Positions 7,601-22,500 of a stretch of 47,562 nt of DNA are shown in pieces. A program made the translations under genes and the position numbers. Source of the DNA: Dethiobacter sp. (GTDB lineage Bacteria; Bacillota; Dethiobacteria; DTU022; UBA8154); contig QZJM01000053.1 in NCBI GenBank assembly GCA_003605065.1, positions 1-47,562 of the forward strand, written 5' to 3'. The notes under the pieces are model-generated. The model saw nothing but the letters and a program-made list of their open reading frames with translations. It made no database searches and had not been told where the DNA came from. How positions within the stretch are numbered: the first letter of the stretch is position 1; each line of letters starts with the position of its first letter.

Positions 7601-7838
7601 CCTTCAGCTTGTCCTTATTTAAAAATCCCAGCTTAACATACTTGCGTACTATAAATTCATGGAAATAGGAGGTGTTCTCTTCATTATACCCTTCCAGATC
7701 AGCAGACCTCATGTCTTCCGCCAGCTCTCTGAAATCTCTTTTGCCAAAGAGGGAAAGGAAGTATTTATTGAGCACCAGGCAGTCATTGAGATTAATGGCT
7801 TTATTTGCTTTCTTGGTCTTCTTTGCCCCCATCATCAC
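4638..7838 (-). CDS. Type III restriction enzyme, Res subunit (helicase-nuclease)
   Basis: A 1066-residue superfamily-2 helicase with a C-terminal nuclease; the Res partner cleaves DNA after ATP-dependent translocation or communication between unmethylated sites. Walker A is CATGSGKT at about residues 161-168. The DExH box is DEGH at about 268, and motif III is SAT (FEYSATF). The helicase C-terminal part contains 'GSKKFTEGWNSWRVSTMGLI' and a 'QLFGRGVRLKG' arginine-finger motif. Near residues 975-995, 'YPDYIMWI' and 'TFIDPKG' give a PD...D-x-K nuclease signature. The start overlaps the mod stop by 4 bp (ATGA), typical of co-translated Mod-Res pairs. An in-frame MMMG start leaves the exact ATG uncertain by 1-2 codons. 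The length fits the family. Confidence 0.9.
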   Translation of the reverse strand: MMMGAKKTKKANKAINLNDCLVLNKYFLSLFGKRDFRELAEDMRSADLEGYNEENTSYFHEFIVRKYVKLGFLNKDKLKEYDENIFRYVQHIGEGRGGLTLKYFQYLALLFTEMYLDRYFLDRENFVADLNNFLHEFNSESDGETISDYTANSLNKLAFMCATGSGKTLIMHINILQYQHYFKKAREYDKSLSMNQIILLTPNEGLSNQHIDEMKLSGIRCRLFEKDTLQEKGEVLVIDINKLEEQGKVKTVSVDSFEQNNLVLVDEGHKGLSGNVWYDYRGRLSENGFSFEYSATFKQAIKEEKKKSDAEALAHQYGKAIIFDYSYKYFYNDGYGKEYRIYNLKESLSKEQQEIYLTGCLLSFYQQMKIYQSDKATFAPFNIENPLLVFVGNSVNKTVSKDELTDVQEVLVFINGFTSTKEKTVGLIKMLLDDNTGLLDERGHELFYGDFSFLWHLFDRKAEAVYDDLLKTVFDTTSTGRLHMVNLKQIAGEIGLRIGSDNEYFGVINVGVGGDSDLIKNIEKGKTGIVTDDNQFENESLFRKINEKNSKINILIGSKKFTEGWNSWRVSTMGLINFAKGEGSQAIQLFGRGVRLKGYENCLKRSAKLDYPVTAPNNIRKIETLTIFGVKADYMAQFKEYLEKEDLDLNDSIREFKLPVVNRFPDAKDRLKVIKVKEGINFKKQSKRLVLTTPEDGFLDNLVKNKVKVDYNATVQSLASIKGEDVNYQKGEAVLEPLHLAFLDGDKLYRELLQYKNQKAYYNISIEKPLLPEILKIKGWYTLFIPEAFMSIDSYDKIARINDICVMLLKNYLDRFLKYHKAQWEAPYLVYGDLKANDPNFIDEYNITLFNKDRFEEFERLFEGIKDALEKNRRLNKYQDKHLNFRYFDFYSHLYTPLISIDKGIRIEVSPVSLNSDEKRFIDRLKDYCDTNPAVFTEKRLYLLRNKSKMGMGFFEAGNFYPDYIMWIAEGTKQYITFIDPKGIMMLEKNINNPKIQFYKTIKELEARLQPTCVGKQIILNSFILSGTPAADSSAFYGLKKPEFESRNVLFLEDEDCMEKLMSKVL

Positions 7839-10800
7839 ACCCCCTCGAACATCCTCTTCTTAAATTCAAGCTCGATTAAATGAACCTTCCACTGTTCCTT
7901 TTCGCTCTTGAGATTTTCCAGGTTGTTATCTCCATTGACATAGATGAGGTTAAGCTCCATGCCCCCGGATTCAGCGCGGTATTTCGTAAAAAAGGCGTCC
8001 AGGGCAGCGTTATCGGCTGCCAGATCATCGGTAAGGCTGCGCCAGATAACAAGGGCTTTATCCCCATTAGGCATAATGCCTTCCACTGTTTTAAAGGCAT
8101 ATTTCCCTTCCTTGTCTGCTGTGAGCATTACGGCGTTTTCATATTTAGCCTTGCTATCAGGTATTGCATTAAAACGGGCAGCAGCTTTTTGCCTCGTAAC
8201 AGTAAGGCCAAGGAGGTAATTAAAGGTTTCCACCAGGTCGACGGTTGTTTCTTTTGTCTCGTTGTTTTCAGCAATTTTCATTTTATAGGCAAAAGGCTCC
8301 TTAAAGCTGTCAAGGCTTAAGAGGCTGCCCCTGCTTTCAATGTCCAGCATATAGGATACAAGGTACTCGTTAAAGAATTTTGCGTCCATCCTTAGCTGCT
8401 TCTCCTGTTCAGGCGTGCGGCTAAGCTCGATATTATTCAATGTATCCTCATAGCTTTCCAGACGAATGTATTTAAAAATCTGTGAAACACCTGTATTCCT
8501 GTTCTGCGGCTTGCCGTCCTTCCAGTCTTTAGCGTAGACAACCTTTTTAATCCTCGGCTTGGTAACTGTGTTGAAATAGTTGCCCATTTCTACCAGGATA
8601 TACTTACGGCTGCCTCTGTCTTCGCGGTTGAGGTTTATTACTGCATGACCTGTGGTGCCGGAGCCTGCGAAAAAATCTAAGACATAATCATCATTTTCTG
8701 TTCCAGATACCCTAATACAGTCAGCAACCAACTTTTGCGCTTTAACAAAGTCAAACTCTTTTTCTGCAAATAGTTCCTTCAATTCTGCTGCTCCATAGTT
8801 AGCAGAAGCATATTTTTTATCATCCCACCATGTAATAGGAAGTGATTCTTCATCCATTCGGGTTTTAAAGTCTATACTGATGTCACCGCTTTCACCTCTT
8901 CTAACTCTGTATTCTTCTAACTCATTTGAAACCCTCAAATGTCCTCTTTGCCAATTTTTTTCAATAACCACATCTCCTTTTTTTACAATTGGATATATAA
9001 TCACTTCAGTGCTAAGAGGCTGTTCCAATAACAAATATTCACGTTTACTCTCCACCCATTCCATCTTAGGAATTCGGATTCTATCATTACAGCCTACAAA
9101 AATGGGGTAGTAAAGTTTTGGACGATCTTCCCTCCTATCATTGTTGCCAGACCTAATAAAATTTGCCCAAGCAAACCTTCCTTTTTCATCCTCTTTTGGG
9201 TATCGTGCTAAAGACTTTTCTGTTTTTTCAAGACCACGAGGAATAGAATCCTCTGTTTTCCCATAAAAAACTGCATATTCATGTGAGGGTGCAAATTTAC
9301 CCTTGGTTTTGCGCCCTGCTGGATTGGATCGAACAGCGACAATTCCTACTTGTTTTTGGAATAAACTTGAGAGAAGTGAACGCAATTCACAGACCTCTTC
9401 ATCATCAATGGCTACACATATTATGCCTCGCAAATATAGGTAGCTATGGGTTAAACTAATCCTATCATTCATTAAAGAAAGCCACGAACTTTTCTTGTAG
9501 TCATTTTTATATAAAATAGCTGAAGCGTCGGTATTATACGGCGGATCAATATAAACGCACTGAATCTTTTCCTTATACCTCTCCTGTAGCAAACTCAAAG
9601 CCTGAAAATTCTCACTGTGAATTAAGAGACCGTTTGTCTCCTCATCTAAATTATCGATGCTTGCAACAAGCCGTTCCTTGAATTCCGTTGTAAAATGCTT
9701 TGTGTCCAGCACAAGGTTTTTATTCTGTTTTAAAAAATCTACAGTCAGCGGATTGGAATAGCCTGTTTCCATCAAGTTCCCGGCAATCTCGTCAATGGCA
9801 TACATCTCTACCCATTCCTGTCGCTGGTCATCGTTTGCGGCTATTTCGGGATAGAAACTCTCGTCAATCTTATCCAGGGTGATACACCAGTTTGTCTCCA
9901 ACACAAACTTTTTCTTAAGCCACAGCTTTTTCTGAAAGTCCTCTATTTGCGCCAAAAAGTCAATAATGGTGCGTCCTACTTTCTTAATGGCCTTAACCTT
10001 GGCCAGGTAGGTATTTACTTTCACTTCATTGTCGGTGTCCAGGTCGTCCAGGTGCATAACCTCGGACTTTATGTAAAAATCCAGCTCCATGTTTAAAAAG
10101 CCCCGCAAGTCCTTATGGATAAAATAATCGAAGGTGTTTTTGGCAACATAGGTTTCCAGGTGCTTTTCCAGAATTGTCCGGGTTTTGTTCTTTTCTGTGG
10201 GCGCAGGCAGGTTGACAGCCCAATGAAACCGTTTAAGCTCCGGGTTTTCGGAAACGGCGCTTTTCATTTTATCGACGGCGGATTTATTGAGTTTTGTATT
10301 GTCCTTTAGCTTGTTAATACCGTCGTTCTCGTTGGCGGCATTGCGGTACTCAAATTTGAATGTAAGTTCGTTGCCTTCGGCCTCTAGGAAGGCCCCGTCA
10401 AGCAGGATGAATTCACGCTTCTTGTCACCGTTTTCCTTGTTGTTATTTTGCTCGGTATTGGCATCAACAAGTTTAAAATGTATAGTATATTTTTCTCCTT
10501 GGACATCCACCTTAAAGGAATAATCCCTGAAGTTTTCACTGGTTTTGATGTAGTATTGGTCATGGTTGGCCCAGTAGAGCTTTACCTCTTCCCCTTCATA
10601 GGGAATAGCATAAACTCCTTCTTTGTAACGCCGCTTACTGATGAAATCTCCCTCGTCATAGTAACGGCTAAAGAAGTTATATAGAGCAGAATACACATCG
10701 CTTTCCAACTCGGTGGCCCCTGTGCCGGAGGACAACTTGGCTTTATATTCGGCATATTCTTCCTTCAGCTTGCTGTCCTCAACCTTGACGCCTACACTTT

Positions 10801-11026
10801 CACACTGTTTTTCAATTTCTTCCATACGCTTTTTGCCTTGACTGTTATCAGCAGCATATTTTGACAATATTGAGTTAACCTCGCCGGCAAGGGTGTTTTC
10901 AATGAAATTATTTATCTCGTTTTTCCGGATATTCATGATTCGGTATATGCCGAAGTCAAGGTCTGATTTTTCCAGTTCAAACATTTCTTTTAAAAGTTTT
11001 GTAAAGCGTTGCAGTTTTTCGCTCAT
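7835..11026 (-). CDS. Type III DNA adenine-N6 methyltransferase, Mod subunit
   Basis: A 1063-residue methyltransferase. Catalytic motif IV 'YIDPPYNT' lies at about residue 494, and the SAM-binding motif 'DFFAGSGTTGHAV' at about 782. This order (IV, then recognition domain, then I) marks a beta-class N6-adenine enzyme, as in Type III Mod and related systems. A long N-terminal region of about 450 residues precedes the catalytic core, making it larger than classical Mod proteins (about 650). AGGAGGGG stands before the ATG, and the 3' end overlaps res by 4 bp. The recognition sequence cannot be read from the protein. With Res it should form the methylation and self/non-self arm of the system. Confidence 0.88.
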   Translation of the reverse strand: MSEKLQRFTKLLKEMFELEKSDLDFGIYRIMNIRKNEINNFIENTLAGEVNSILSKYAADNSQGKKRMEEIEKQCESVGVKVEDSKLKEEYAEYKAKLSSGTGATELESDVYSALYNFFSRYYDEGDFISKRRYKEGVYAIPYEGEEVKLYWANHDQYYIKTSENFRDYSFKVDVQGEKYTIHFKLVDANTEQNNNKENGDKKREFILLDGAFLEAEGNELTFKFEYRNAANENDGINKLKDNTKLNKSAVDKMKSAVSENPELKRFHWAVNLPAPTEKNKTRTILEKHLETYVAKNTFDYFIHKDLRGFLNMELDFYIKSEVMHLDDLDTDNEVKVNTYLAKVKAIKKVGRTIIDFLAQIEDFQKKLWLKKKFVLETNWCITLDKIDESFYPEIAANDDQRQEWVEMYAIDEIAGNLMETGYSNPLTVDFLKQNKNLVLDTKHFTTEFKERLVASIDNLDEETNGLLIHSENFQALSLLQERYKEKIQCVYIDPPYNTDASAILYKNDYKKSSWLSLMNDRISLTHSYLYLRGIICVAIDDEEVCELRSLLSSLFQKQVGIVAVRSNPAGRKTKGKFAPSHEYAVFYGKTEDSIPRGLEKTEKSLARYPKEDEKGRFAWANFIRSGNNDRREDRPKLYYPIFVGCNDRIRIPKMEWVESKREYLLLEQPLSTEVIIYPIVKKGDVVIEKNWQRGHLRVSNELEEYRVRRGESGDISIDFKTRMDEESLPITWWDDKKYASANYGAAELKELFAEKEFDFVKAQKLVADCIRVSGTENDDYVLDFFAGSGTTGHAVINLNREDRGSRKYILVEMGNYFNTVTKPRIKKVVYAKDWKDGKPQNRNTGVSQIFKYIRLESYEDTLNNIELSRTPEQEKQLRMDAKFFNEYLVSYMLDIESRGSLLSLDSFKEPFAYKMKIAENNETKETTVDLVETFNYLLGLTVTRQKAAARFNAIPDSKAKYENAVMLTADKEGKYAFKTVEGIMPNGDKALVIWRSLTDDLAADNAALDAFFTKYRAESGGMELNLIYVNGDNNLENLKSEKEQWKVHLIELEFKKRMFEGV

Positions 11027-11044
11027 TGGCTAACCCCTCCTGAT

Positions 11045-11209
11045 CTAGTGTCCCTTTGTATTTATCTTGGTTTCTTGGCTATCTTCTCTTTTAAGCCTTG
11101 CATCTGCTGGTTTTGGGGCATCTTTAGGAATTGCCCATGCCCAGCCAAGACGCTTGGCGCCGTCAACTTTGTCCTGCTCGCAGAGAACCTGCACCCTATT
11201 TCTAATCAT
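11045..11209 (-). pseudogene. Truncated small HTH DNA-binding protein upstream of mod
   Basis: A 54-residue frame ('RVQVLCEQDKVDGAKRLGWA', then 'WAIPKDAPKPADAR'). It matches the second half of the small MerR-like/HTH_17 proteins whose usual form starts with a 'VKEAA.KWGIS.R' helix-turn. That N-terminal helix is absent here; upstream sequence gives no continuation. The stop lies immediately before the mod ribosome binding site, so it was probably the leading gene of the restriction operon, perhaps its regulator. It may still be expressed as a short peptide from the ATG at 11209. Confidence 0.55.
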
Positions 11210-11258
11210 CCTATGCCATCAACTTTCAGGCATTATGGGTTAGCAAGAGCACCAATGA

Positions 11259-13340
11259 TTACGACAAAAATGGAAGGAATAGGAAGTCTTTCTTGCTATC
11301 CTCATCAGCGAATTTTATATTCCATCGTCTTTCCATAAACGCGAGCAGCTTTAATCCCCGGTCAAGAATTGCGTCTGCATTCCAGTCGTTATATCCTGCT
11401 ACTTCAATTTCACTATGTGAGCCATCTGAATAACCTCTTCTAACCTTCTCGCTCTGCACATTTAATTTGGCAATCTTTTTTTCGGGAAAACTGTCGTTTT
11501 GCAGGCTTGAATTGATACTGCTGGACAGCAGCAAAAGATTACCCAGTGACCCCGCCAGAGCTTTCTTTTCCTCTTTTGAATAATTCTTAAATGCGGCATC
11601 CCAGTACGCATTATTAGGCGCTTGGGGATAGATGTGTTCTATCGAGACTCTGTCTTTTTCGCTCTTGACAAAGTAGCTCCAGTCAATTTTTTGATTGCCA
11701 AACTGATGGACTTTTTCGGTTTCGTATTCATACAACAAATACCGAAGTCCGTTCCAATCATAAAAGCCCCCTCCATTTTTATAAAGTCTTTGGATATAGC
11801 TTTTGAAGGGCAGGTACTCAAAATCGGTTTCTGGTTTTAGCCATCCCTCTATCCTATCTTTTAATAATTGGCATATTTCATCTATTGTTATTTCTCCGCC
11901 CCGAAGTTGCCTTGTCGTTCTATAAAATTCATTGTTCCGATATAGGGAAAGCGCCCTGCCTAACCTAAACGTTATGAAAATAAAGCGTTCTATTTCCTTG
12001 AACAATCTAACTCTGTCCGCTGCAGTTACACCTGGGGAGATAAACGACACTGTAACAAGTGGCCTAAAGTAAGCAATACCAATCCGGTTTAACCTATCAA
12101 GCCACATCCTCTCGTCTGCCATTAAATCCGCAGCATTAACAGGGTTAAATGTATTATACCAATGAACCACCGCTGATTTTAGGCTTCCGACATAGTCCTC
12201 AATCTCTTTCGGCGATACTTTCGCACGTCTGATTACTTTTTCTTCTATTTCAACATCTGAAGTGTCATCCTCATCGTTATCATCTCGCATTTCCATTACT
12301 TCGACAACAGAAGCTACTTTAACCTCTGTCTTGCTGAATATGTTTTGCGGCGTGAATTTCTCGTCAAGCAAAAAGCGAATATAGTCATCGCCCTTTTGCC
12401 GGGTATATTGAAAATACATTATCCAGTGTGCAACAAGGAAATCATCGTCTGAAAGAGGCTTTTGCTTATTACGTCCCAACTGATAATATGCCTCTTTCCA
12501 CGCATCGTTGACTTTCCCCCGTAAAACTGCCCGTTCATCGCTTTTTAGCTCATCCTTATCATAGAGCGTCGTGAGATAAATCAGACGGTTTTTTAATAAT
12601 TCAAGGCTTGAGAGCTTTTTCCCACGGTTATTCATTGTTTCAAAAGCCACAAATACATCAAAATCGTCCTGTATCTCGTGGAGATTAAACATTAAGTTTT
12701 GTGTTGCCTTTTTAAACAATGCCTCAATTTCGCTGCCGCCGTATTTCTGATAATGGTTCGCAAGATTTTCTTCAAAGAAGCATTTTGCATTTTCGAGGTT
12801 AAGGGTATAAAAAGTCTCTTGAATACTACCACCGCCCGGCTCGCCCAAAATTCGATGACGTAGATATCTAAAGCTCGGATTATCCGTTTCGTATCCGAAC
12901 TTATATGTATTTATGATAAACTGGGGTGGCTTCTGTACAACAAGATAATCTTCCTTTATTTGTTTAAGATTGAAAGTGCCGATATAAGTGTCCTCATTCT
13001 TTTTATCTTTATTCTCAGGCAAGCCTCTAATAGCATTGACTATCTCTTGAATAAAAACTACAAATGTTGTTAGTCGTTGTTGGCCATCAACTATGTAGAA
13101 AGGCTTGAACCCTCTATCTTCAATCATCCAACGTTCCTCGTTCCAAGCACGCCAGTCTGCTTTGTCAACTTCCTTGAGAGATAGCAAACCGGTATAATGA
13201 AATCGGTCAGATGGCAGGTTAACAATATCCTCCCAGAAATCTTTAAGCTGTCTGGTAGTCCAAGCATATCCCCGCTGATAATCCGGTATCTTAAAGATTC
13301 TATCCTTAAATATACCTTTTAATGACTCTAATGCTTTCAT
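11259..13340 (-). CDS. GmrSD-type DUF262/DUF1524 modification-dependent endonuclease
   Basis: A single-chain fusion of about 693 residues resembling Type IV restriction enzymes of the GmrSD/BrxU group, which cut modified (for example glucosylated hydroxymethylcytosine) phage DNA. The N-terminal DUF262 nucleotide-binding domain shows 'IPDYQRGYAW' (about residues 16-25) and 'FYIVDGQQRLTTF' (about 80-90). A middle signature 'MNNRGKKLSSLELLKNRLI' is present. The C-terminal DUF1524 HNH nuclease has 'SIEHIYPQ' and 'LGNLLLLSSSINSSLQN'. The start at 13340 is chosen because GGGGAGGG precedes that ATG, rather than a TTG 24 bp upstream. It lies 49 bp upstream of the truncated HTH gene and may be co-transcribed with the Type III genes. 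The target modification is unknown. Confidence 0.85.
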   Translation of the reverse strand: MKALESLKGIFKDRIFKIPDYQRGYAWTTRQLKDFWEDIVNLPSDRFHYTGLLSLKEVDKADWRAWNEERWMIEDRGFKPFYIVDGQQRLTTFVVFIQEIVNAIRGLPENKDKKNEDTYIGTFNLKQIKEDYLVVQKPPQFIINTYKFGYETDNPSFRYLRHRILGEPGGGSIQETFYTLNLENAKCFFEENLANHYQKYGGSEIEALFKKATQNLMFNLHEIQDDFDVFVAFETMNNRGKKLSSLELLKNRLIYLTTLYDKDELKSDERAVLRGKVNDAWKEAYYQLGRNKQKPLSDDDFLVAHWIMYFQYTRQKGDDYIRFLLDEKFTPQNIFSKTEVKVASVVEVMEMRDDNDEDDTSDVEIEEKVIRRAKVSPKEIEDYVGSLKSAVVHWYNTFNPVNAADLMADERMWLDRLNRIGIAYFRPLVTVSFISPGVTAADRVRLFKEIERFIFITFRLGRALSLYRNNEFYRTTRQLRGGEITIDEICQLLKDRIEGWLKPETDFEYLPFKSYIQRLYKNGGGFYDWNGLRYLLYEYETEKVHQFGNQKIDWSYFVKSEKDRVSIEHIYPQAPNNAYWDAAFKNYSKEEKKALAGSLGNLLLLSSSINSSLQNDSFPEKKIAKLNVQSEKVRRGYSDGSHSEIEVAGYNDWNADAILDRGLKLLAFMERRWNIKFADEDSKKDFLFLPFLS

Positions 13341-13477
13341 GTATACTAACCCTCCCCAACACAATCATAACATATAATTTGACCAAATTATGGGTATCTC
13401 TGAAAACATATTCCCCCATACAACCCCCACCGTCTACGCAAACATAAGCCGATTTCCCCCAAAACCCTTATGACATC

Positions 13478-13545
13478 AGCCTTCTAATAGGTTTTCCATT
13501 GAGCCAAACTACTGTCACAACATGACATGTATTGTTAAAAAATCT
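13478..13545 (-). pseudogene. RlmD C-terminal scar A (putative attachment-site relic)
   Basis: The minus-strand frame ends CHVVTVVWLNGKPIRRLMS before a stop, like the HVETVVLL end of RlmD methyltransferases. Plus-strand GCCAAACTACTGTC (13503-13516) is identical to 22738-22751 in the intact rlmD. No other part of the gene is present, which fits an attachment remnant rather than ordinary gene decay. Confidence 0.5.
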
Positions 13546-13754
13546 TCCAAACGGCATCTATCCCGTCTACTCACCTATACCAAAAACAGCATGTTATCTA
13601 TCCTGTCAACTCAACCCTCACTTAAAAATCACAGTAGACCTGTTCCCCCATACTATAAAATAGGTCTTTCCGGTCAGTCTGCCACTCGCCATTATTTCGG
13701 CGCAAAGTAGCAAACGCTGGAAAGCCCTTTATTACTGCGTTTCCCCGCTTATTT

Positions 13755-13800
13755 ACTTTCTACACGTGACATCAACACTACTGTCTCAACATGCGGGGAG
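13755..13800 (-). pseudogene. RlmD C-terminal scar B (putative attachment-site relic)
   Basis: The minus-strand frame reads PHVETVVLMSRVESK and stops, a textbook RlmD C-terminus without the body of the gene. ACTACTGTCTCAA (13777-13789) is identical to 22743-22755 in the intact rlmD. The orientation is the same as scar A and rlmD. Confidence 0.55.
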
Positions 13801-13916
13801 ATGACAGCATAAATGATGCGTTATGGGGAAGTGGTCTACCGGAAAGTTTCTGTTTTCAGTGACTTCTCAGTTAACGGGAACAGGTCGAGATTAGTTGGGT
13901 TAAGCGTTATGCTCCC

Positions 13917-14132
13917 TTAACGTGGTTTATTCTTCAATTTATCCAACAACCCCTGAATCTTTTCCTTCTGCTTCTGAGTTCCTTCAAGATCCAACTCAAA
14001 CGATACACTAAGCCAGCTCCCTTCCCGGGCACCCTCCGGGAGGAGTTTTTTTGGTATATTTACTTTTACCTCTTCGTCACCAAAAAGGACAACAGCATAA
14101 TCTCCTTCAAAACGATCAATAACGGCTTTCAT
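13917..14132 (-). CDS. DUF3006 domain protein
   Basis: A 71-residue protein starting 'MKAVIDRFEGDYAVVLFGDE', the signature of DUF3006: a small beta-barrel-like protein with an acidic, then Lys-rich C-terminus. In Firmicutes it is repeatedly found next to ComEC-like metallo-beta-lactamase proteins, and that is the case here, 36 bp downstream of one. AGGAGGG precedes the ATG. The molecular role is unknown; by association it may bind or modulate the neighbouring hydrolase. Confidence 0.8.
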   Translation of the reverse strand: MKAVIDRFEGDYAVVLFGDEEVKVNIPKKLLPEGAREGSWLSVSFELDLEGTQKQKEKIQGLLDKLKNKPR

Positions 14133-14168
14133 TTTGCCCTCCTGTATGTCTAGTTATCTGCATACTGC

Positions 14169-15531
14169 TTATTTAACAGTAAAATGAACCCTTACACTTT
14201 CGCCTCCGCCTTTGATATCAATCGGCCAGGAGCCAGGGGTTGTTTTCGCACCAACTTTCCATGACCAGGTTACCTTACCATTAGCTCCGGATGTTTTCGC
14301 TTCCAAGCCAGAGGCTTTGCTGGGTCCGGCCTTATAAGTGACAGTGATTGAATATTGGGTGTTAGCCTTGCCCTGGATCGTAATGCTGGCTGTCCCGCCC
14401 TGGGCCACTGTTTCTGTATAGCTGACGACGGTAAGCTTGGTCTCGTGAGCAGGTGCGGGTGCAAGGGCAGGCGCAGGTGCTGGTTCTGGCACTTTAGGCG
14501 GGGTATACTGGTAAGGCTGCTTTTGGTTTATCTCATAAGTCTGGCCGTTTGTTGTGATGACAATGGTACCGTGGACATCGGTCCGGTAGATATCGACCTT
14601 GGCATCAGCAAGTTTTTTTAGTGTTTCATCGTGCGGATGGCCGTATTTGTTATCTTTGCCGCACATTATTACGGCCACCTTAGGGCTTACGGAACTCAGA
14701 AAAGCAGGTGTAGTGCTTGTCTTACTGCCGTGATGGCCAACTTTTAGGATAGTGCTCTTCAGGTCTTCTTTTCGCTTCAACATCTGATCCTCACTGGCCT
14801 TCTCTGCATCGCCGGTAAGCATGAAGCTAATCTGGCCAAACGTAATCTTAACCACAATGGAAGCATCATTCAGGTGAGAAGATGAAGGAGAGGTCGGGTG
14901 TAATATATCCATTAAGGCTCCGTTACCGAGATCTCGGGACATGCCGGCCCGGCCCTCGGTGAATTTAATATCTTTCTTATCAATGAGAGTCAGGTAATCC
15001 TCAAAGGTCTTTGTGGTATGTACTACACCCGGGTCTATGACCTCTTTAACAGGAATAACATCCAGGACGTTTATCAAGCCGCCGATGTGGTCCGCATGAG
15101 GATGGGTGCCAATAACTAAATCAAGGCTTTTAACGCCCTGGTTCTTTAGGTAATTAACTACAGTCATGCCTCTGTCTCCACCGTCAATAAGTGTGTTTTG
15201 AGAGGGTGCCTGGATGAGGATAGCATCACCCTGGCCGACATCGATGAAGTGGACCTTAAGCTGGCCGGATGGTTCCGCTTTTGGCTCGGTCGGTTGGCTC
15301 TTTAGTTTCCTCAGTTGGTTTGGCTGGTGCAGGAGTTGTAGCTTCTTTACCGGTGTCTGCAGGGACAGTAGATTCCTTACCAGCATCACTGCTTGATCCG
15401 GTTGATGGTTGTGTTGCCGTTGGAGTCTGCTGGGACGGGGAATCCACTTTTGGTGTCGAACTCCCCCCGCAGCCGGCCAGAAGAGAAAACATCAAAAGAA
15501 CAGAAACAACCAGGGCAATGGTTTTTCTCAT
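14169..15531 (-). pseudogene. Secreted ComEC-like metallo-beta-lactamase lipoprotein, frameshifted
   Basis: One gene appears split by a frameshift. The 5' frame (15256-15531) encodes a lipoprotein signal peptide (MRKTIALVVSVLLMFSLLAGC, lipobox LAGC) and a Ser/Thr/Pro-rich linker. The 3' frame (14169 to about 15310) continues with the catalytic domain: 'VHFIDVGQGDA', 'THPHADHIGG' (HxHxDH metal site), 'LTGDAE' and 'VGHHGS'. After a Pro-Ala linker it ends in a beta-rich domain of about 90 residues resembling an Ig-like surface module. The switch falls within the overlap 15256-15310 in a GACC-repeat-rich stretch, so a one-base indel restores a protein of about 450 residues. GGAG precedes the ATG at 15531. 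The domain fold is that of the soluble ComEC hydrolase; the substrate is unknown, and an extracellular nuclease or phosphodiesterase is plausible. Confidence 0.75.
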
Positions 15532-15619
15532 TTTCTCACTCCAATTATTAGATGAGTGGTTTCATAAAGTCTGAAACCCTTTATCCACGGGACTTCAAGA
15601 GTCGTAGATAAATATTTTT

Positions 15620-15641
15620 CACCCCTATGTGGGGTGTTTTT
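15620..15641. terminator. Bidirectional terminator
   Basis: The stem CACCCC (15620-15625) pairs with GGGGTG (15631-15636) around TATGT, followed by TTTTTG; on the minus strand it is followed by AT-rich sequence. It separates the lipoprotein gene from the transposition-ATPase ruins. Confidence 0.65.
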
Positions 15642-15690
15642 GTTTTGCGCCGATCGGCTGATATCATGAGATATATTAAGAATTCTATGC

Positions 15691-15890
15691 CTAAACAATA
15701 ACACCTCTTTGACGGTCAAGGCCTGTCAGCACTCGAAGGATGCGGGACTCCTCAATCACGTCATGACTTCGCTGTTTTGCGTCATACAGGGCTTGGCTGC
15801 AAATCAGGTTAATAACTCTGGGGATACCCTGGCTGGCAGCGTGAACCTGAGAGATGGCGCTCTCAGCAAACATAGATGTCGTCAGATTGG
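15691..15890 (-). pseudogene. C-terminal remnant of an ExeA/TniB-like transposition ATPase
   Basis: The minus-strand frame ends 'AASQGIPRVINLICSQAL' followed by 'VIEESRILRVLTGLDRQRGV'. This is the C-terminal lid region of ExeA-family AAA ATPases that accompany some integrase-type transposases. The Walker motifs and the whole N-terminal two-thirds are missing. The frame abuts the plus-strand istB remnant at about 15885-15905, so one element was probably inserted into the other. Confidence 0.6.
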
Positions 15891-16300
15891 CCGCCTGCCG
15901 CCAGGGACTAAAAACCAAGTACTACCGGGTTAATCGGCTGCTTACCGATCTTGCCATTGGTCGCGGGGACGGCTCCTATAACAAAATCATGCGTGACCTC
16001 AAGAAAACCGATCTGCTCATCCTTGATGACTGGGGAATGACGGTTCTTGACCCAGCTTCCGGTCGCGACTTGCTTGAAGTCGTTGAGGTTCCAGTTTGGC
16101 TACTGCTCAACCATCATCTCCGGACAACTCCCCGTCAAAGACTGGCATGAACTCTTTGAAGACAGCACTGTGGCTGATGCCGTATACTTGACCGCCTCAT
16201 CCACAACGCCTACCGCTTCGAGCTGCACGACCCTTCAAAACGAAAGCCGGATACTTCCCCTGAAGAAAACTATCAAGATACTATTGCCAAAATCGAATAA
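15888..16300 (+). pseudogene. istB: IS21-family IstB helper ATPase, truncated and frameshifted
   Basis: Three consecutive frames give one broken IstB. Frame one carries 'LAACRQGLKTKYYRVNRLL' and the Walker B region 'DLLILDDWGMTVLD' (about 15888-16085). Frame two carries 'STIISGQLPVKDWHELFED' (to about 16190). Frame three carries 'LDRLIHNAYRFELHDPSKRK' to a TAA at 16298-16300. IstB is the AAA+ target-selection helper of IS21 transposition. The N-terminus with Walker A is absent and no istA is seen, so the element is dead. Tandem repeats resembling an IS21 end follow directly. Confidence 0.75.
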
Positions 16301-16331
16301 TCTTTGCTAAACTGAAGACACTTCACGAGGT

Positions 16332-16415
16332 GGCCGAATCCTACCGGATTCGGAGGCCGAATGTGACCGGAACAGCCGGCCGAATAAGGCCGGATTACTG
16401 GCCGAATGCTCCGGA
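16332..16415 (+). repeat. Four 17-bp repeats at 23-bp period (likely IS21 end)
   Basis: GGCCGAATnnnnCCGGA occurs at 16332-16348, 16355-16371 and 16378-16394; a fourth copy, one base shorter, is at 16400-16415. The start-to-start spacing of 23, 23 and 22 bp puts the copies roughly on one helix face. Their place just beyond istB fits multiple transposase-binding sites at an IS21 terminus. Confidence 0.65.
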
Positions 16416-16433
16416 ATAAGCAAGCAGCTGGGT

Positions 16434-16559
16434 ATGAATAATAGGATGCCGCAAGTCTGTAGAATTATGTACGAAAAAATGCTGCCGCAAGATGAAATAT
16501 TGCGTACAACTCCAAGTGGTCAAAGCTCTACAATAAAAATTAAATATTATCTAAAATAA
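16434..16559 (+). CDS. 41-residue small ORF upstream of the zinc-ribbon gene
   Basis: The frame starts MNNRMPQVCRIMYEKMLPQD and ends 'STIKIKYYLK'. It lies 14 bp upstream of the Cys-rich gene and reads like the C-terminal part of a small beta-strand protein. The ribosome binding site is poor (GCTGGGT). It could be translated together with the Cys-rich gene or be a remnant. The function is unknown. Confidence 0.35.
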   Translation: MNNRMPQVCRIMYEKMLPQDEILRTTPSGQSSTIKIKYYLK

Positions 16560-16573
16560 ATGTGAGGCAGATT

Positions 16574-16843
16574 ATGGTCAGCCTTTTCAATTACGATGCG
16601 ATGGTCGAATGGGCGGAAATAAACGATTGGATTCCATTGCGTTGCAAAGCCTGCGGAGCTTTATACACCACCAAGAATTACCGCTATGTGGGGGCTAAAC
16701 CGGTTCATTATGCCATTGATTATGAGCTGGATCCGGATCCGAAGAGGGCGAAAGAGCTATCTTTCGATAAATGTAAGCGTTGCGAACATAACTTAAAATA
16801 TCTGAAACCCGATTACAAGGTTTATCGGATCGGCAGATGGTGA
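16574..16843 (+). CDS. Small Cys-rich, zinc-ribbon-like hypothetical protein
   Basis: Encodes 89 residues with two CxxC pairs, 'RCKACGALY' (about residues 23-31) and 'KCKRCEHN' (about 66-73), which suggest one zinc site. The first part is acidic and aromatic (VEWAEINDWIPL), the end basic. I choose the ATG at 16574 because GAGG lies 7 nt before it; an in-frame GTG lies 12 bp upstream. It precedes the HEPN-NACHT gene by 355 bp on the same strand. No family is recognised, and a role as a companion of the defence gene is unproven. Confidence 0.55.
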   Translation: MVSLFNYDAMVEWAEINDWIPLRCKACGALYTTKNYRYVGAKPVHYAIDYELDPDPKRAKELSFDKCKRCEHNLKYLKPDYKVYRIGRW

Positions 16844-17198
16844 ATTGATATCGCCGGCTTGATCGTAAGGAAAAATGCGTATAAATAGAGTTCTCGGATC
16901 CAATCTGGATTTATAAGGTCATATATTACCAATAAAACTGTCAGTTTAGAGCTACTTTTTGTATCCGATAAATGTTGCAGCATATTTACAATTTTTAACA
17001 TTAAAAAAATTGCTGGTGTATGAAAAGCATTGGCTCCGATTTAGAAGTTAACTTATGTTATCGAAGTAGCTGAGTAACAGAGATAAGGCAAGCTACGAAT
17101 CTTGATGTTGAAAAAGGCTAAGATGATGAGAACAGATGAAAAGACCAGAATCATGAGAAATAATTAATTGAATGTGTAAGCGGATAGGGGTGAAAAAA
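16844..17198. other. Gene-free leader upstream of the HEPN-NACHT gene
   Basis: AT-rich, no convincing gene and no clear consensus promoter. It contains TCGGATCCAA (16894-16903), a decamer that recurs downstream of the HEPN-NACHT gene at 20651-20660. Only short frames (20 codons or fewer) occur. Confidence 0.4.
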
Positions 17199-20100
17199 AT
17201 GTCTTGGTACGAAGATTTCTGCAACGATACTCAAAACTGGGATGAAGAAGGGTTTATGGAATTTCCATACCCGATAGCTTTTCTCTACAGAAGCTTACGT
17301 AATATGCTTAGTACGGGAGACATGATCGGCTGCCTTCTAAGGCTTAAAGACATTTTTGATGTTACGATAAGACATCTGGTTTTGTTTGCGGCAGCTATAG
17401 AATTGAATAATGGTGATGAGCAGATTGTAAAACTAATGTGTAAGCCTAACAAATCCTTGTCCTTTGGGGATTGGGTTAACGATTTGACTAAGGCTGCGCG
17501 AGAGCTGCCGTGTATATCTGACGGTTCACAGCCAGATTTGTTGGCAGCACTCGTAAAAGCAAATAGGTTTTACAATGAAAAGCAAATCGTGAAGTGGCGC
17601 AATGACGAAATAGCGCATAACATAATGCCTAATACGGCTAGTACGGTGTTTATTGAAAACTTAAGGCAGAAGATCATAGAAGTGGCTGAATTTTTCACAA
17701 AGAATCATACTCTAATTCAAGCCCTGCAACTATATCAGAACGGCCATCCTCTGGTTGGAGATAATTGCCAGGTAGATGATTCGCCTTTGTTCATCCAAAC
17801 AAATGGTAAGTTAGTCCCTACCGAGCCTGTTATAGTCCCATATAAAAAGAGTATTGCCTACTTTGAATCCATCGACCCGAGAAATGTATGCAGGTACATT
17901 GATTACATCTCTGAGGGTAGATATATCGCATCAGATGATTACTTCCGTAATATCAGGAGAAAGCATTACTCGGCGTTATCGGTGACAGATAATAGTGATG
18001 CTACTACTCCGGTATATGTAAGCAGTGTGGATAAGGCGCTGGAGTCGTTTGGTAAAGCGGAGGACTATGTGAAAGCAACGTATTATTTGGACTGGCTTAA
18101 AGCAGCTATGGGCAAGAACGGTAAAGGCATTTATATGATGTGCGCAGAGCGGGGCACGGGTAAAACCGCTTTTACATATGCTATTGATGAACTTGGTGGC
18201 GACAATATGCATATCGAAGGCTGTACTGTACGCTCATATTATATAAATCGGACGAACATTAGAAGCGCGATGGATTTTTCCACCTCCGTTTCAAGGCTAT
18301 TTACAAAGACGAAAACGGATAGGCTTGAGTCCTCATCAGATATGCATCTACCGCGAATTACCATAGCCAGCTGCAATCCAGCAGAAGACATGGCATACTT
18401 ATTAAATACTTATCGGCGATATCATGATAAATTATTTTCGCAGGATCGATTACTGCTGGTAATTGACGGCATTGATGAGTTGCAGGCTGATAATGCAGGC
18501 ATCCTAAACTTTTTACCGCATCCCTCAATGCTTGACGAAGGTGTACATATATTGCTTACTTGTCGAAGCGATGGCGCTATGCCAGCTTATGTGCTCTCGT
18601 TTGTACAGACATTCCAATTTACAGAGATGAAAATCTTTAATCGTAAAGTTGAGAACAGAGAGCTTCTTCGGCAGTATGTAAATTCAAAAATTAGAGTAAA
18701 GGGGTGTAAACTGAAAGAGAACGAAATTGAAAAATTAATGGGTATTTTGCACGATAGCTTTTCAAATGCCCAACTTCTAAAACAGTTCTTGGAGTACGGT
18801 AGCTATGACGATTTGGATGCGATTAAGCACCAATCGGTATTAGATTTTTACTATGACTATCTGAAAAGGCTCTATGGAGAAACGGTGTTTAAGAAAGTGC
18901 TGAAGTTGTTGTGCACTTTAGCCACTTTATATGAACCAGTTGATATTCATGAGTTAATTTGGCTTGCCGATGGTGTCAACGATGCATCCGATATAACGGT
19001 GAGCGATATAGCCATGCTGTACGATTTGAAATGCCTTATCTCAGTGGAACGGAGTTATCAAGGAAATCTCTACTATATGGGCAATAAGCAGTCTACGGAA
19101 TATGTGGTAACAAACTTTTTTGTAGAATTAAAGAGTCAGGTACAAGAGTGGGTTGCTTATATCAAGGCGGCAGAGTTGGAGGAAGGTGGAGTATTTAATC
19201 CGATCTCCTATCTCTTAGCATATTTGTACCACTACTGTAAAGAATATGGCGACATTAAATGGATTGATGATAAAATGATTGAAAAGATGAACAACTACGC
19301 TGTACGTCTAGCCAGAATCAGTAATTACGAGCATTCAATTCACAGAGTGATAAACATCTACTTATCAGTAGCTACAATTCATAAGGCTAGACATTACAAA
19401 GAGCCGCATGAAATAAAGCACATGACTGGGTATATAGTGGCTTGCAGAAATGTAATCCATTCTTATTATAAAATAAAGCAGTACCAGCTTGCGATAGATA
19501 TGGGAAATGAGGTCATTCGGTTTTGTGAAGGCTTTGACACGGAGGTGCGAAAACGTAAAGATATTACCCAAATTCTTTCAATAACATACTCCGATATGTC
19601 CGCTGTATATGGTAGTATTAATGATTATAAAACATCTGAGAAGTTCTACCTTAAAGCTAAAGAATTAGCAGAAAAGGTGAATGACACCGCAGTTCTGCGC
19701 ACATTAAAAATGAACGCATTAAATATCTATAAAGTACTCGATCCTGCTAAGGCTGTGGGGAGTGCAACTTCGATTATTGAAAATGAGGAGAGTTGCTACA
19801 GCAAGGCCGAGATTGCATCTGCACATCTTTGGAGAGGAGTGGCAAAACGAAGGCTAGGCGCAACTAAGGAAGAAGATTATAAGGACTATAATGAAGCCAT
19901 TAAGATCATAGAAACCTTACACGCCTCCACGAAGCCGCCTGCACCTTCCGTGGAACCTCTTGAGGGGAAAATTGTACCTCACAATTTTGAGCTCGAATTC
20001 GGTGTCTATATCCATGCGCTTTTTTTCAGGGGCCAATGCTACAACCGGCAAGAAGGTGATATTGAAAAAGCTATTAGAGATTTTCGTCAGGCACTACAGA

Positions 20101-20552
20101 GCCTAGCAATACTGGAAATGAAAGGCGTCAATACGGATCTATTTTTGAAGCCACGAATATTAACCCAATTGGCCCTTGCTTTTTCCCACCGTCATTTTAT
20201 TAACAAAAAAAATGACGATAAGGAGCAGGCGTTGGGTTGCATTCAGGCTGCAGAATTAATTTGGAGCCAACTAAAAGAGGCAGGAATAATGATAGACAGG
20301 CTATCAGCCATCAACACCTATCACAACCACGGGTTGATACTGAGCAATGTGGGACAAATAAAAGATGGTATAGCTAAGTTGATTGATACGACCAAGATAT
20401 TTATGCCCCAAGACGATAGAGAGTTGAGCGAGATAAAAAGGATATATGATTCAATCAGCTCGCTCTATAACGAAATCGATGATAAAAATAACGCTGATTT
20501 ATACAGTGCGAAAAAGGACGAAGTCACAATTGTGAAAGTCAAAAATGAATAG
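17199..20552 (+). CDS. HEPN-NACHT-TPR STAND NTPase, predicted antiphage defence protein
   Basis: An 1117-residue multidomain protein. About residues 1-180 are helical and contain 'KWRNDEIAHNI' (about 140-150), matching the RN-x4-H catalytic motif of HEPN ribonucleases. Residues about 285-600 form a P-loop NTPase. Its Walker A is AERGTGKT (about 319-326), its Walker B is 'LLLVIDGIDEL', whose DGxDE form is typical of NACHT, and its sensor is 'HILLTCRS'. The C-terminal half contains TPR-like helical pairs (for example 'YSDMSAVYGSINDYKTSEKF', and 'RGQCYNRQEGDIEKAIRDFR'). The architecture of effector, NTPase switch and repeat sensor is that of STAND immune proteins. I start at 17199 because GGGGTG precedes that ATG, rather than 27 bp upstream. 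A terminator follows. Function is inferred from architecture; no partner effector is nearby. Confidence 0.75.
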   Translation: MSWYEDFCNDTQNWDEEGFMEFPYPIAFLYRSLRNMLSTGDMIGCLLRLKDIFDVTIRHLVLFAAAIELNNGDEQIVKLMCKPNKSLSFGDWVNDLTKAARELPCISDGSQPDLLAALVKANRFYNEKQIVKWRNDEIAHNIMPNTASTVFIENLRQKIIEVAEFFTKNHTLIQALQLYQNGHPLVGDNCQVDDSPLFIQTNGKLVPTEPVIVPYKKSIAYFESIDPRNVCRYIDYISEGRYIASDDYFRNIRRKHYSALSVTDNSDATTPVYVSSVDKALESFGKAEDYVKATYYLDWLKAAMGKNGKGIYMMCAERGTGKTAFTYAIDELGGDNMHIEGCTVRSYYINRTNIRSAMDFSTSVSRLFTKTKTDRLESSSDMHLPRITIASCNPAEDMAYLLNTYRRYHDKLFSQDRLLLVIDGIDELQADNAGILNFLPHPSMLDEGVHILLTCRSDGAMPAYVLSFVQTFQFTEMKIFNRKVENRELLRQYVNSKIRVKGCKLKENEIEKLMGILHDSFSNAQLLKQFLEYGSYDDLDAIKHQSVLDFYYDYLKRLYGETVFKKVLKLLCTLATLYEPVDIHELIWLADGVNDASDITVSDIAMLYDLKCLISVERSYQGNLYYMGNKQSTEYVVTNFFVELKSQVQEWVAYIKAAELEEGGVFNPISYLLAYLYHYCKEYGDIKWIDDKMIEKMNNYAVRLARISNYEHSIHRVINIYLSVATIHKARHYKEPHEIKHMTGYIVACRNVIHSYYKIKQYQLAIDMGNEVIRFCEGFDTEVRKRKDITQILSITYSDMSAVYGSINDYKTSEKFYLKAKELAEKVNDTAVLRTLKMNALNIYKVLDPAKAVGSATSIIENEESCYSKAEIASAHLWRGVAKRRLGATKEEDYKDYNEAIKIIETLHASTKPPAPSVEPLEGKIVPHNFELEFGVYIHALFFRGQCYNRQEGDIEKAIRDFRQALQSLAILEMKGVNTDLFLKPRILTQLALAFSHRHFINKKNDDKEQALGCIQAAELIWSQLKEAGIMIDRLSAINTYHNHGLILSNVGQIKDGIAKLIDTTKIFMPQDDRELSEIKRIYDSISSLYNEIDDKNNADLYSAKKDEVTIVKVKNE

Positions 20553-20831: not shown

Positions 20832-20861
20832 TTGACATCCATCATAGAAGATTGCTATAAT
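20832..20861 (+). promoter_or_regulatory. Consensus sigma-A promoter without an obvious gene
   Basis: TTGACA (20832-20837), an 18-nt spacer and TATAAT (20856-20861) form an ideal promoter on the plus strand. Downstream lies only non-coding sequence and then the converging IS110 transposase. It may drive an RNA, or a gene cut off by the insertion. Confidence 0.55.
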
Positions 20862-21022
20862 TGCGATTAATAAAAGCAAATACCCATTTCTTCATCCCTA
20901 TTTACTCAACAGTGCATTGACGTTATCTACCCTGAAAACATTTTGCCTGTAAAAGGCAACACAAAATAAGGCTACGAGAAAGCTAATTTCGCAGCCCCCG
21001 GATAACAGCACCCAGCGGCTGC

Positions 21023-22243
21023 TTACGCTACTTTTTCTTCCACGATGACCGTATACCCCAGAGCTTGTATACGTTTCACGGCACTCTTTAATACCGCGGC
21101 AGACTTACGTTCGTCAAAGTAGTTGGCGCCTAAATCATGATATGGCTGACGGTTTTTCAGGATATGGTACGCAATAACCAGGATACTGTGGCCTACTGCA
21201 ACAGCGGCACGGTTACCACCCCTCCTGGCGGCGATTCTATGATACTGGGCGGACAGGTACGTTTCTTTACTGCGGGAGGCTGCTCGAGCGCATTGTACCA
21301 GCGTACTTCGCAAATGTTTGTTGCCTTTTGTCGTCTTGCCTGACTTACGTTTACCGGCACTTTCATTGCTGCCTGGCGACATTCCCGCCCAAGAGGCCAG
21401 ATGCGCAGCTGATGGGAAGCGGTCCATATCAGTACCGACTTCAGCCAGAATGCTTTCGGCGGAACGCCTGCCTACACCGGGAATAGTATCAAGCAGCTCC
21501 AGTTCTTCCTCAAAAGGGCGCAGTCGCTGACCGACCTCCTCATCAAGGCTTTTAATCTCCTCGTCCAGAAAGTCAATATGCCGCAGCTGAGCAGCCAGTA
21601 TTTTTCTCTGGTGCGGACCAACCAAGCCATGCAGCGCCTGCTCCAGATTCTCTCTTTTGCTTTTCATGGAGCCCTTTGCCAGTTTGGAGAGCAGTTTGGG
21701 GTCGCTGATATTGTTGATGATTGCTTCAATCATGGAGCGGGAGGAGGCTCCCATAATATCGCTCACTACGGAAGAAAGTTTAATGTTGCACCCCTCCAGA
21801 ACCTTTTGCAGCCAGTTCACCTCGCGGGCGCGCTCTTCAATCAGGCTCTTGCGGTAACGTACCAGTTCCCTTAGCTCACGCTGATCCCTGGACGGGATGT
21901 AACTGCCTTTCAGCAACCCGTGCCTGAGCAGATCAGCAATCCACTCGGCATCTTTGACATCCGTCTTGCAACCAGGGACTGCCTTGATGTGTTGTGCATT
22001 TACAACCATCGCCTCAATCTCCGCTAATTCCAGAAGGTTATAAATCGGTTTCCAGTATACCCCTGTGCTTTCCATGGCCACATGGGTGCATTGATGCTCC
22101 TTGATCCAATCCGCAAGCTCCAGGATCTCGCCGGTCATCGTGCCAAAAGTTCTGATCACCTTCCCTTTCGGTGTGATGATGCAGGCCGTGATGGTCTTTT
22201 TGTGAACATCAAGGCCACAGCATCTCTCATGAATAATATGCAT
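21023..22243 (-). CDS. IS110-family transposase
   Basis: A 406-residue DEDD recombinase. The N-terminal RuvC-like domain shows 'CCGLDVHKKTITACI' (first Asp), 'VAMESTGVYWKPIYNLL' (Glu) and 'CKTDVKDAEWIADLLRHG' (the DxxD pair). The C-terminal Tnp_20 domain carries 'LDTIPGVGRRSAESILAEVG' and the catalytic-serine region 'AGMSPGSNESAGKRKSG'. The family moves through a circular intermediate guided by a structured bridge RNA. The length is normal and the frame intact, so the copy may be active. The ATG at 22243 follows a GGGAAT stretch. It lies between the HEPN-NACHT gene and rlmD. Confidence 0.92.
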   Translation of the reverse strand: MHIIHERCCGLDVHKKTITACIITPKGKVIRTFGTMTGEILELADWIKEHQCTHVAMESTGVYWKPIYNLLELAEIEAMVVNAQHIKAVPGCKTDVKDAEWIADLLRHGLLKGSYIPSRDQRELRELVRYRKSLIEERAREVNWLQKVLEGCNIKLSSVVSDIMGASSRSMIEAIINNISDPKLLSKLAKGSMKSKRENLEQALHGLVGPHQRKILAAQLRHIDFLDEEIKSLDEEVGQRLRPFEEELELLDTIPGVGRRSAESILAEVGTDMDRFPSAAHLASWAGMSPGSNESAGKRKSGKTTKGNKHLRSTLVQCARAASRSKETYLSAQYHRIAARRGGNRAAVAVGHSILVIAYHILKNRQPYHDLGANYFDERKSAAVLKSAVKRIQALGYTVIVEEKVA

Positions 22244-22500
22244 CCGTCATTCCCTTTCCGCGGCATAAAATTGCAGCCGGTGCAGCAATCGTAGAATGAT
22301 ATTCTACCCTGCGTGCTTACCCTCTCGGGAGCAACATTCCGTGGTGCACCAGATCGCTGAGGTCCGTCTTATGGTCGGACTCGAAGTACCAAGGTTATTC
22401 GACCTCATCGCCAGCCGCAGAAGATAACTTCAACAGAAGGGCGTTTTCATCCTTCCGATGGTGCCGTAGGCGGCATGATTGTCTTATGCATGGATTTTAC
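22244..22500 (-). ncRNA. Candidate IS110 bridge RNA region
   Basis: About 250 nt without coding capacity upstream of the transposase, rich in hairpins: TGCCG/CGGCA (22462-22475), GTCCG/CGGAC (22362-22380) and GTAGAAT/ATTCTAC (22291-22307). In the IS110 group the bridge RNA lies in this position. The guide loops cannot be assigned without the exact element ends and target. Confidence 0.45.

What the first reader, a model, noticed from the sequence alone, without database searches (positions are those of the whole stretch)
22244..22500. Candidate bridge RNA of an intact IS110-family element
Seen: a complete DEDD transposase and about 250 nt of hairpin-rich non-coding DNA upstream. Known: IS110-group bridge RNAs come from this end and have two guide loops. 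Inference: a functional, programmable recombinase-RNA pair, useful because the target in the defence island can be read from flanks.
Basis: partly seen in the sequence, partly recalled or inferred. Interest (0 to 1): 0.55.

Follow-up and report, generated by a model that had tools for sequence, protein, structure and literature searches.

The report
Mirror-image bridge RNA of an IS110
A jumping gene next to bacterial defence genes carries a guide RNA that appears to tell it where to insert, and in its family the target-reading halves of that RNA sit in the opposite order to the best-studied example.

Summary
The finding is real. Window 20927-22484 (minus strand) is an IS110-type element with AG cores at both ends, an open 406-aa DEDD transposase (21023-22243) and a bridge-RNA fold at 22273-22418. 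A covariance model built without the window finds that stretch and nothing else in the window (130.3 bits, E 1.4e-26). 23 of 29 pairs of the fold show compensatory changes.

The unexpected part is guide order. In this clade the 5' side of the target loop fits the right target (top strand) and the 3' side the left target (bottom strand); the left donor guide is also 3' of its hairpin. That mirrors IS621 and resembles the order reported for IS1111, although this RNA lies upstream of the gene as in IS110. In 65 records the mirrored order scores z 20.7 (left) and 9.3 (right), the IS621 order about 0. 19 held-out loci agree for the left guide.

Against a fully readable target: the window's left guide fits its left flank (6 nt with core), but its right guide does not fit its right flank. 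Activity is untested. New variant of a known kind; published drawings that I could not see may already show it.

The parts
20927..22484 (-). IS110-type element including an AG core at each end (22484-22483 and 20928-20927)
   Evidence: End motifs defined on multi-copy relatives with different flanks, placed on the window
21023..22243 (-). DEDD/serine transposase (recombinase), 406 aa
22244..22484 (-). Left non-coding end (LE), 241 nt with core
20927..21022 (-). Right non-coding end (RE), 96 nt with core; ends TTTTCAGGGTAG
22273..22418 (-). Conserved bridge-RNA unit (true transcript ends unknown)
   Evidence: Covariance model without the window: 130.3 bits, E 1.4e-26; fold supported in 48 sequences
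22392..22399 (-). Right target guide (5' side of the target loop), AATAACCT
   Evidence: Position by family alignment; does not fit the window's own right flank
22368..22375 (-). Left target guide with core (3' side of the target loop), ACCATAAG
   Evidence: Shares CATAAG with the left flank; family concordance 0.91
22304..22311 (-). Left donor guide with core (3' side of the donor loop), CAGGGTAG, identical to the right end
22461..22476 (-). Hairpin near the left tip (ATGCCGC..GGCAC), upstream of the RNA unit
   Evidence: Sequence and fold

Best explanation
The stretch upstream of the transposase encodes the bridge RNA of an IS110-type insertion sequence. The recombinase binds this RNA; one internal loop pairs with the genomic target around an AG core and the second with the element's own joined ends, so the element inserts at a sequence named by the RNA. 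In this clade the loops are mirrored compared with IS621: the right target guide (pairing the top strand) is 5', the left target guide (pairing the bottom strand) is 3', and the left donor guide is 3' too. The core reads AG on the gene strand and CT on the other. The simplest mechanism is the IS621 chemistry acting with the strands exchanged, the gene-plus-RNA cassette being turned round relative to the core. Shown by sequence analysis: the ends, the fold, the order of the target guides in the clade, the place of the left donor guide. Inferred: that the RNA is made, is bound and guides recombination, and that the cassette is turned round. Unresolved: the right donor guide, and the window's own right target.
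For: Ends from multi-copy genomes. Fold: 95.9% of cells paired, 23 of 29 pairs with changes on both sides, 0 of 500 shuffles reach any measure. Covariance match with the window left out. Guide order in 65 records: left 6.72 against 3.95 shuffled, right 4.63 against 3.53, 0 of 500 each; IS621 order 3.17/3.18 and 3.38/3.34. 19 held-out loci: left 5.63 against 3.62, 0 of 500. Scan of all RNA positions: left target guide z 9.3, left donor guide z 5.7.
Against: The window's right guide does not fit its right flank. In the unbiased scan the right target guide is weak (best right-side signal z 1.9, concordance 0.46), so its order rests mainly. 11 of 65 records have fewer than 6 matching left nucleotides, and 10 of 19 held-out loci. 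The right donor guide was not found. Relatedness inflates the z values. No RNA or activity data.
Confidence: 0.87

Rival explanations
1. An ordinary IS621-type bridge RNA with the left guides 5' and the right guides 3'.
For: Upstream position and two loops as in IS621.
Against: In 65 records the IS621 order scores no better than shuffled targets (304 and 183 of 500 shuffles reach it); the same in 19 held-out loci for the left side (180 of 500).
Confidence: 0.04
2. An IS1111-type element whose RNA happens to lie upstream; the target guide order alone would decide membership.
For: The top-strand match is 5' of the bottom-strand match, as reported for four IS1111 elements. A few IS1111 elements with an upstream region are reported.
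Against: RNA in the long left end with a short right end, a 406-aa transposase (IS1111 330-350 aa), and only a 6-bp inverted repeat (TGAAAA/TTTTCA), 35 nt inside the left end. Identity to IS4321 26%, to IS621 28%, so sequence does not decide.
Confidence: 0.15
3. Only a structured leader that regulates the transposase, not a guide.
For: It lies just upstream of the gene; a regulatory role of small RNAs was suggested for ISPpu9 (text).
Against: A leader would not track the flanking insertion site: 0.91 concordance over five positions, repeated in held-out loci.
Confidence: 0.03
4. The family reading holds, but this copy is no longer mobile, or its right flank or right guide changed after insertion.
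For: Right guide and right flank do not fit; other copies in this genome are partial; a short repeat found in several relatives starts about 40 bp beyond the right end.
Against: Open reading frame with all catalytic residues, complete RNA fold, both ends present.
Confidence: 0.4

Closest known systems
IS621 bridge RNA system (IS110 group; PMC11208160, PMC11208158)
   Same: RNA in the long left end upstream of a DEDD/serine recombinase; first loop for the target, second for the donor; guides read both strands across a two-base core
   Different: Left guides are 3' and the target's right guide 5' (IS621: left 5', right 3'); core AG on the gene strand (IS621: CT); the conserved RNA unit starts 66 nt inside the left end; transposase 406 aa against 326 aa in the IS621 copy aligned
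IS1111-type elements with seekRNA (ISEc11, ISPa11, ISKpn4, ISPst6; PMC11187229)
   Same: Top-strand match 5' of bottom-strand match in the target-reading part
   Different: Their RNA region lies downstream of the gene; they have longer subterminal inverted repeats and shorter transposases
ISEc21 (IS110 type; PMC11187229)
   Same: Upstream non-coding region carrying both target matches
   Different: Its top-strand match lies 3' of its bottom-strand match, the opposite order

Membership tests
[quoted passage not shown]
IS110 group (as against IS1111) | Long left end with the RNA, short right end | tested here: met
   LE 241 nt, RE 96 nt, RNA at 22273-22418
IS110 group (as against IS1111) | Bottom-strand (left) guide 5' of top-strand (right) guide in the target loop | tested here: not met
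   Reverse order in the clade. This feature is reported for IS621 and ISEc21 only; whether it defines the group is open
IS1111 group | RNA downstream of the gene and subterminal inverted repeats of 7-17 bp | tested here: not met
   RNA upstream; only TGAAAA/TTTTCA, 6 bp
Bridge RNA | Two structured loops conserved with the element | tested here: met
Bridge RNA | Target loop letters follow the insertion site | tested here: met
   Met for the clade; for the window itself left half only
Bridge RNA | Second loop letters match the element's own joined ends | tested here: inconclusive
   Left donor guide met; right donor guide not found
Bridge RNA | RNA bound by its recombinase and required for recombination | not testable with these tools
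   Needs bench work

The most novel reading that the evidence does not exclude
A branch of upstream-RNA IS110 elements, sampled here mostly in Bacillota, uses mirror-image bridge RNAs: left guides 3' in both loops, right target guide 5', handshake-like letters on the left target guide, and an AG core on the gene strand. Its gene-plus-RNA cassette would be turned round relative to the recombination core, a third layout beside IS621 and IS1111, which would mean that the RNA-recombinase unit can be inverted between its ends while the chemistry is kept.
Probability: 0.6. Interest if true: 0.65.

Novelty: new variant of a known kind. Interest (0 to 1): 0.5.

Why it matters
Bridge RNAs are being developed as programmable DNA-rearrangement tools, and guide order and core decide how a new one must be written; a clade read in the IS621 order would be programmed wrongly. 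The IS1111-like order in an upstream-RNA element also bears on how the IS110 and IS1111 layouts are related, and offers a testable case of the same recombinase chemistry with strand roles exchanged.

Tried and rejected
Rfam at gathering thresholds found only tRNAs in the window, so I built a model. I first read GATTGCT/GGTTGTT as the right donor guide; rejected because it is the 3' strand of a helix in which all 7 pairs have changes on both sides. I first took GTTATCT, upstream of the RNA unit, for the right target guide because it fits the window's right flank; rejected because it lies outside the conserved fold and the family guide lies elsewhere. It remains an unexplained coincidence. A first extraction of the loops failed because its fuzzy pattern caught wrong places; redone by alignment columns. 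Empty site: flanks searched in 23 and 60 genomes, none found.

Some right ends were probably assigned wrongly (for example L053, L100, L112), which dilutes the right-side scores. The handshake count parsed the guide letters automatically and misread some rows.

Outgroups, hints only: an Enterococcus faecium IS110 (25% identity) has a 9-nt (8-nt in L173) left-flank match in its left end with a TGTTTAG-like right match further 3' by eye, suggesting the IS621 order; the best right-side strings found by the script lay elsewhere. An Enterobacter/Citrobacter element (35%) has TAAAAAA 3' of a similar hairpin, suggesting the mirrored order; its right side reached only 4-6 nt.

Full report
What is there. 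The window lies in a 2.34-Mb, 79-contig genome. On the minus strand a 406-aa open frame (21023-22243) matches both IS110 Pfam domains and the NCBIfam IS110 model. In an alignment of eight transposases the four acidic residues are invariant, and the window has a serine at the place of the IS621 YESG serine. The closest solved structures by sequence are IS621 and ISCro4 transposases.

Ends. A scan of genome contigs kept 79 loci with relatives of 58-82% identity, of 512 found. Several genomes hold many near-identical copies with different flanks (Paenibacillus brasilensis, Paenibacillus sp. HW567, P. filicis, Paenibacillus sp. P25), so the ends can be read directly: left end ..AG|AC..CATGCCGC, right end ..TTTTCAGGRTAG|. 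By the same motifs the window element runs from 22484 to 20927, LE 241 nt and RE 96 nt including cores.

The RNA. 48 units, made non-redundant at 95% from 61 distinct left ends, form alignment A1 and a consensus fold. On the 29-pair, five-helix structure that I named from it, 95.9% of cells pair, 23 pairs have changes on both sides, no shuffle of 500 reaches any of the five measures, and slid controls pair at most 41.8%. A covariance model from 34 of the 48 (window and 13 others left out) finds in the window only 22273-22418 (-), with 130.3 bits and E 1.4e-26. It matches in 51 of 398 genomes drawn from the phylum, the window's own included. The window RNA alone folds only 1.8 sd better than shuffles, so single-sequence folding would not have shown this.

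Guide order. Of 79 loci, five were left without an assigned left end (L080, L084, L107, L109, L110). With the window this made 75 records, of which 10 were dropped (4 without a usable flank, 6 duplicates), giving 65. Longest common strings: left flank plus core against the 3' side of the first loop 6.72 (shuffled 3.95); reverse complement of core plus right flank against the 5' side 4.63 (shuffled 3.53); none of 500 shuffles reached either. In the IS621 order the values are 3.17 against 3.18 and 3.38 against 3.34. On the left, 54 of 65 records reach 6 nt in the mirrored order and none in the IS621 order; on the right 16 and 2 do. The 11 that fall short on the left include L059, L082, L086 and L104. 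Left ends were chosen from end motifs, ambiguous ones by eye, before the loop comparison but not blind to the sequence.

Held-out check. The 30 best-match loci and the window were read with a profile of A1. Twelve were left out: six at least 95% identical to a member of A1 (the window itself among them) and six without a left end. In the other 19 the left guide scores 5.63 against 3.62 (0 of 500 shuffles) and the IS621 order 3.32 against 3.22 (180 of 500). Nine of the 19 reach 6 nt. The right side was not tested statistically there.

Unbiased scan. Over all RNA positions and both strands in 66 records the best target signal is the left target guide (z 9.3, concordance 0.91), and the best donor signal the left donor guide, which equals the right end plus core (z 5.7, concordance 0.96). 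The right target guide is weak in this scan (z 1.9, concordance 0.46), and no right donor guide emerged. The left donor guide lies 3' of the inner hairpin of the second loop; in IS621 it lies 5'. Letters just past the core in the left target guide match the first letters of the left end, 1.50 of 2 against 1.19 shuffled, 0 of 2000, in 56 records. This resembles IS621 handshake pairing with the sides exchanged. Relatedness inflates all these figures.

Control. IS621 copies from E. coli give left target TTATCAGGC-CT, which fits ATCGGGCCT on the 5' side with one mismatch by eye; the right target CTAC fits GTAG on the 3' side. This agrees with the published order, but the string score alone barely separates the two orders for the one copy scored (left 5 against 4, right 4 against 4), so the control checks my conventions rather than the power of the test.

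The window's own target. The left guide ACCATAAG shares CATAAG with the left flank; 1 of 62 other left targets does as well, and CATAAG stands at 22 of 5,746 AG sites of the window on both strands. The right guide does not fit: 3 nt, which 61 of 63 other right flanks reach. Either insertion tolerated a poor right side, or guide or flank changed later. A short repeat also found in several relatives starts about 40 bp beyond the right end.

Mechanism. IS621 chemistry with strand roles exchanged would explain the parts: the 5' guide of the target loop often ends in CU, as in IS621, and reads the strand that carries CT, here the bottom strand. That is inference. TATAAT stands just upstream of the RNA unit in 19 of 60 left ends (1.7% of shuffles), suggesting an internal promoter, but the window has only a 2-mismatch version. 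In IS621 the promoter is formed by joining the ends.

Known or new. Siddiquee 2024 (PMC11187229, abstract and sections 6, 9, 12, 13 read) reports the top-strand match 5' in IS1111 elements and 3' in ISEc21. Durrant 2024 (PMC11208160, abstract, sections 5, 6, 7, 12, 21 and extended-data legends read) describes the IS621 order and names six other elements whose drawings are not held. Of Hiraizumi 2024 (PMC11208158), the TIGR-Tas paper (PMC12045711) and the Thermus paper (PMC6352166) I saw passages. The listings of eight literature searches showed no title or abstract describing mirrored guides in an upstream-RNA element; only open-licence full texts are held. Hence: new variant of a known kind, with that reservation.

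Noticed in passing
A Thermus paper (passages) notes that 32 bp at an end of IS1000, an IS110 element, equal CRISPR repeats, which could be the same thing seen from the other side.
   Followed up: partly
L040, L041, L043, L048, L065: The left targets look like right ends of other IS110 elements (TTTTCATGGGAG, TTTTCAGGATAG and the like) and fit the left guides over 7-8 nt: these elements may be guided to the ends of their relatives.
   Followed up: no
L003 (1829), L012 (1906), L022 (1508), L029 (1510, 1605), L031 (1510): Short MITE-like units: the left-tip hairpin and a TTTTCAGGGTAG-like right end with neither transposase nor RNA unit between; perhaps moved in trans.
   Followed up: no
own genome contig C39:25475-25621 (L123, same place as L002): A complete bridge-RNA unit (149.3 bits) and left end; the whole-element query matched only the left end there and the DNA that follows shows no IS110 frame by eye.
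   Followed up: partly
window 4638-20552: Defence-like neighbours: type III restriction enzyme and methyltransferase, a GmrSD-type protein, a metallo-beta-lactamase-fold protein, and a 1126-aa NACHT/TPR-like protein with no PADLOC match.
   Followed up: partly
window 20832-20887: A stretch repeated in own contig C61 and in several relatives (for example G040, G041, G048), 40-95 bp beyond the right end; nature unknown.
   Followed up: no
window 22419-22428 and 20921-20928: GTTATCT just upstream of the RNA unit is the reverse complement of the right core plus AT AAC of the right flank; it lies outside the conserved fold and may be chance.
   Followed up: partly
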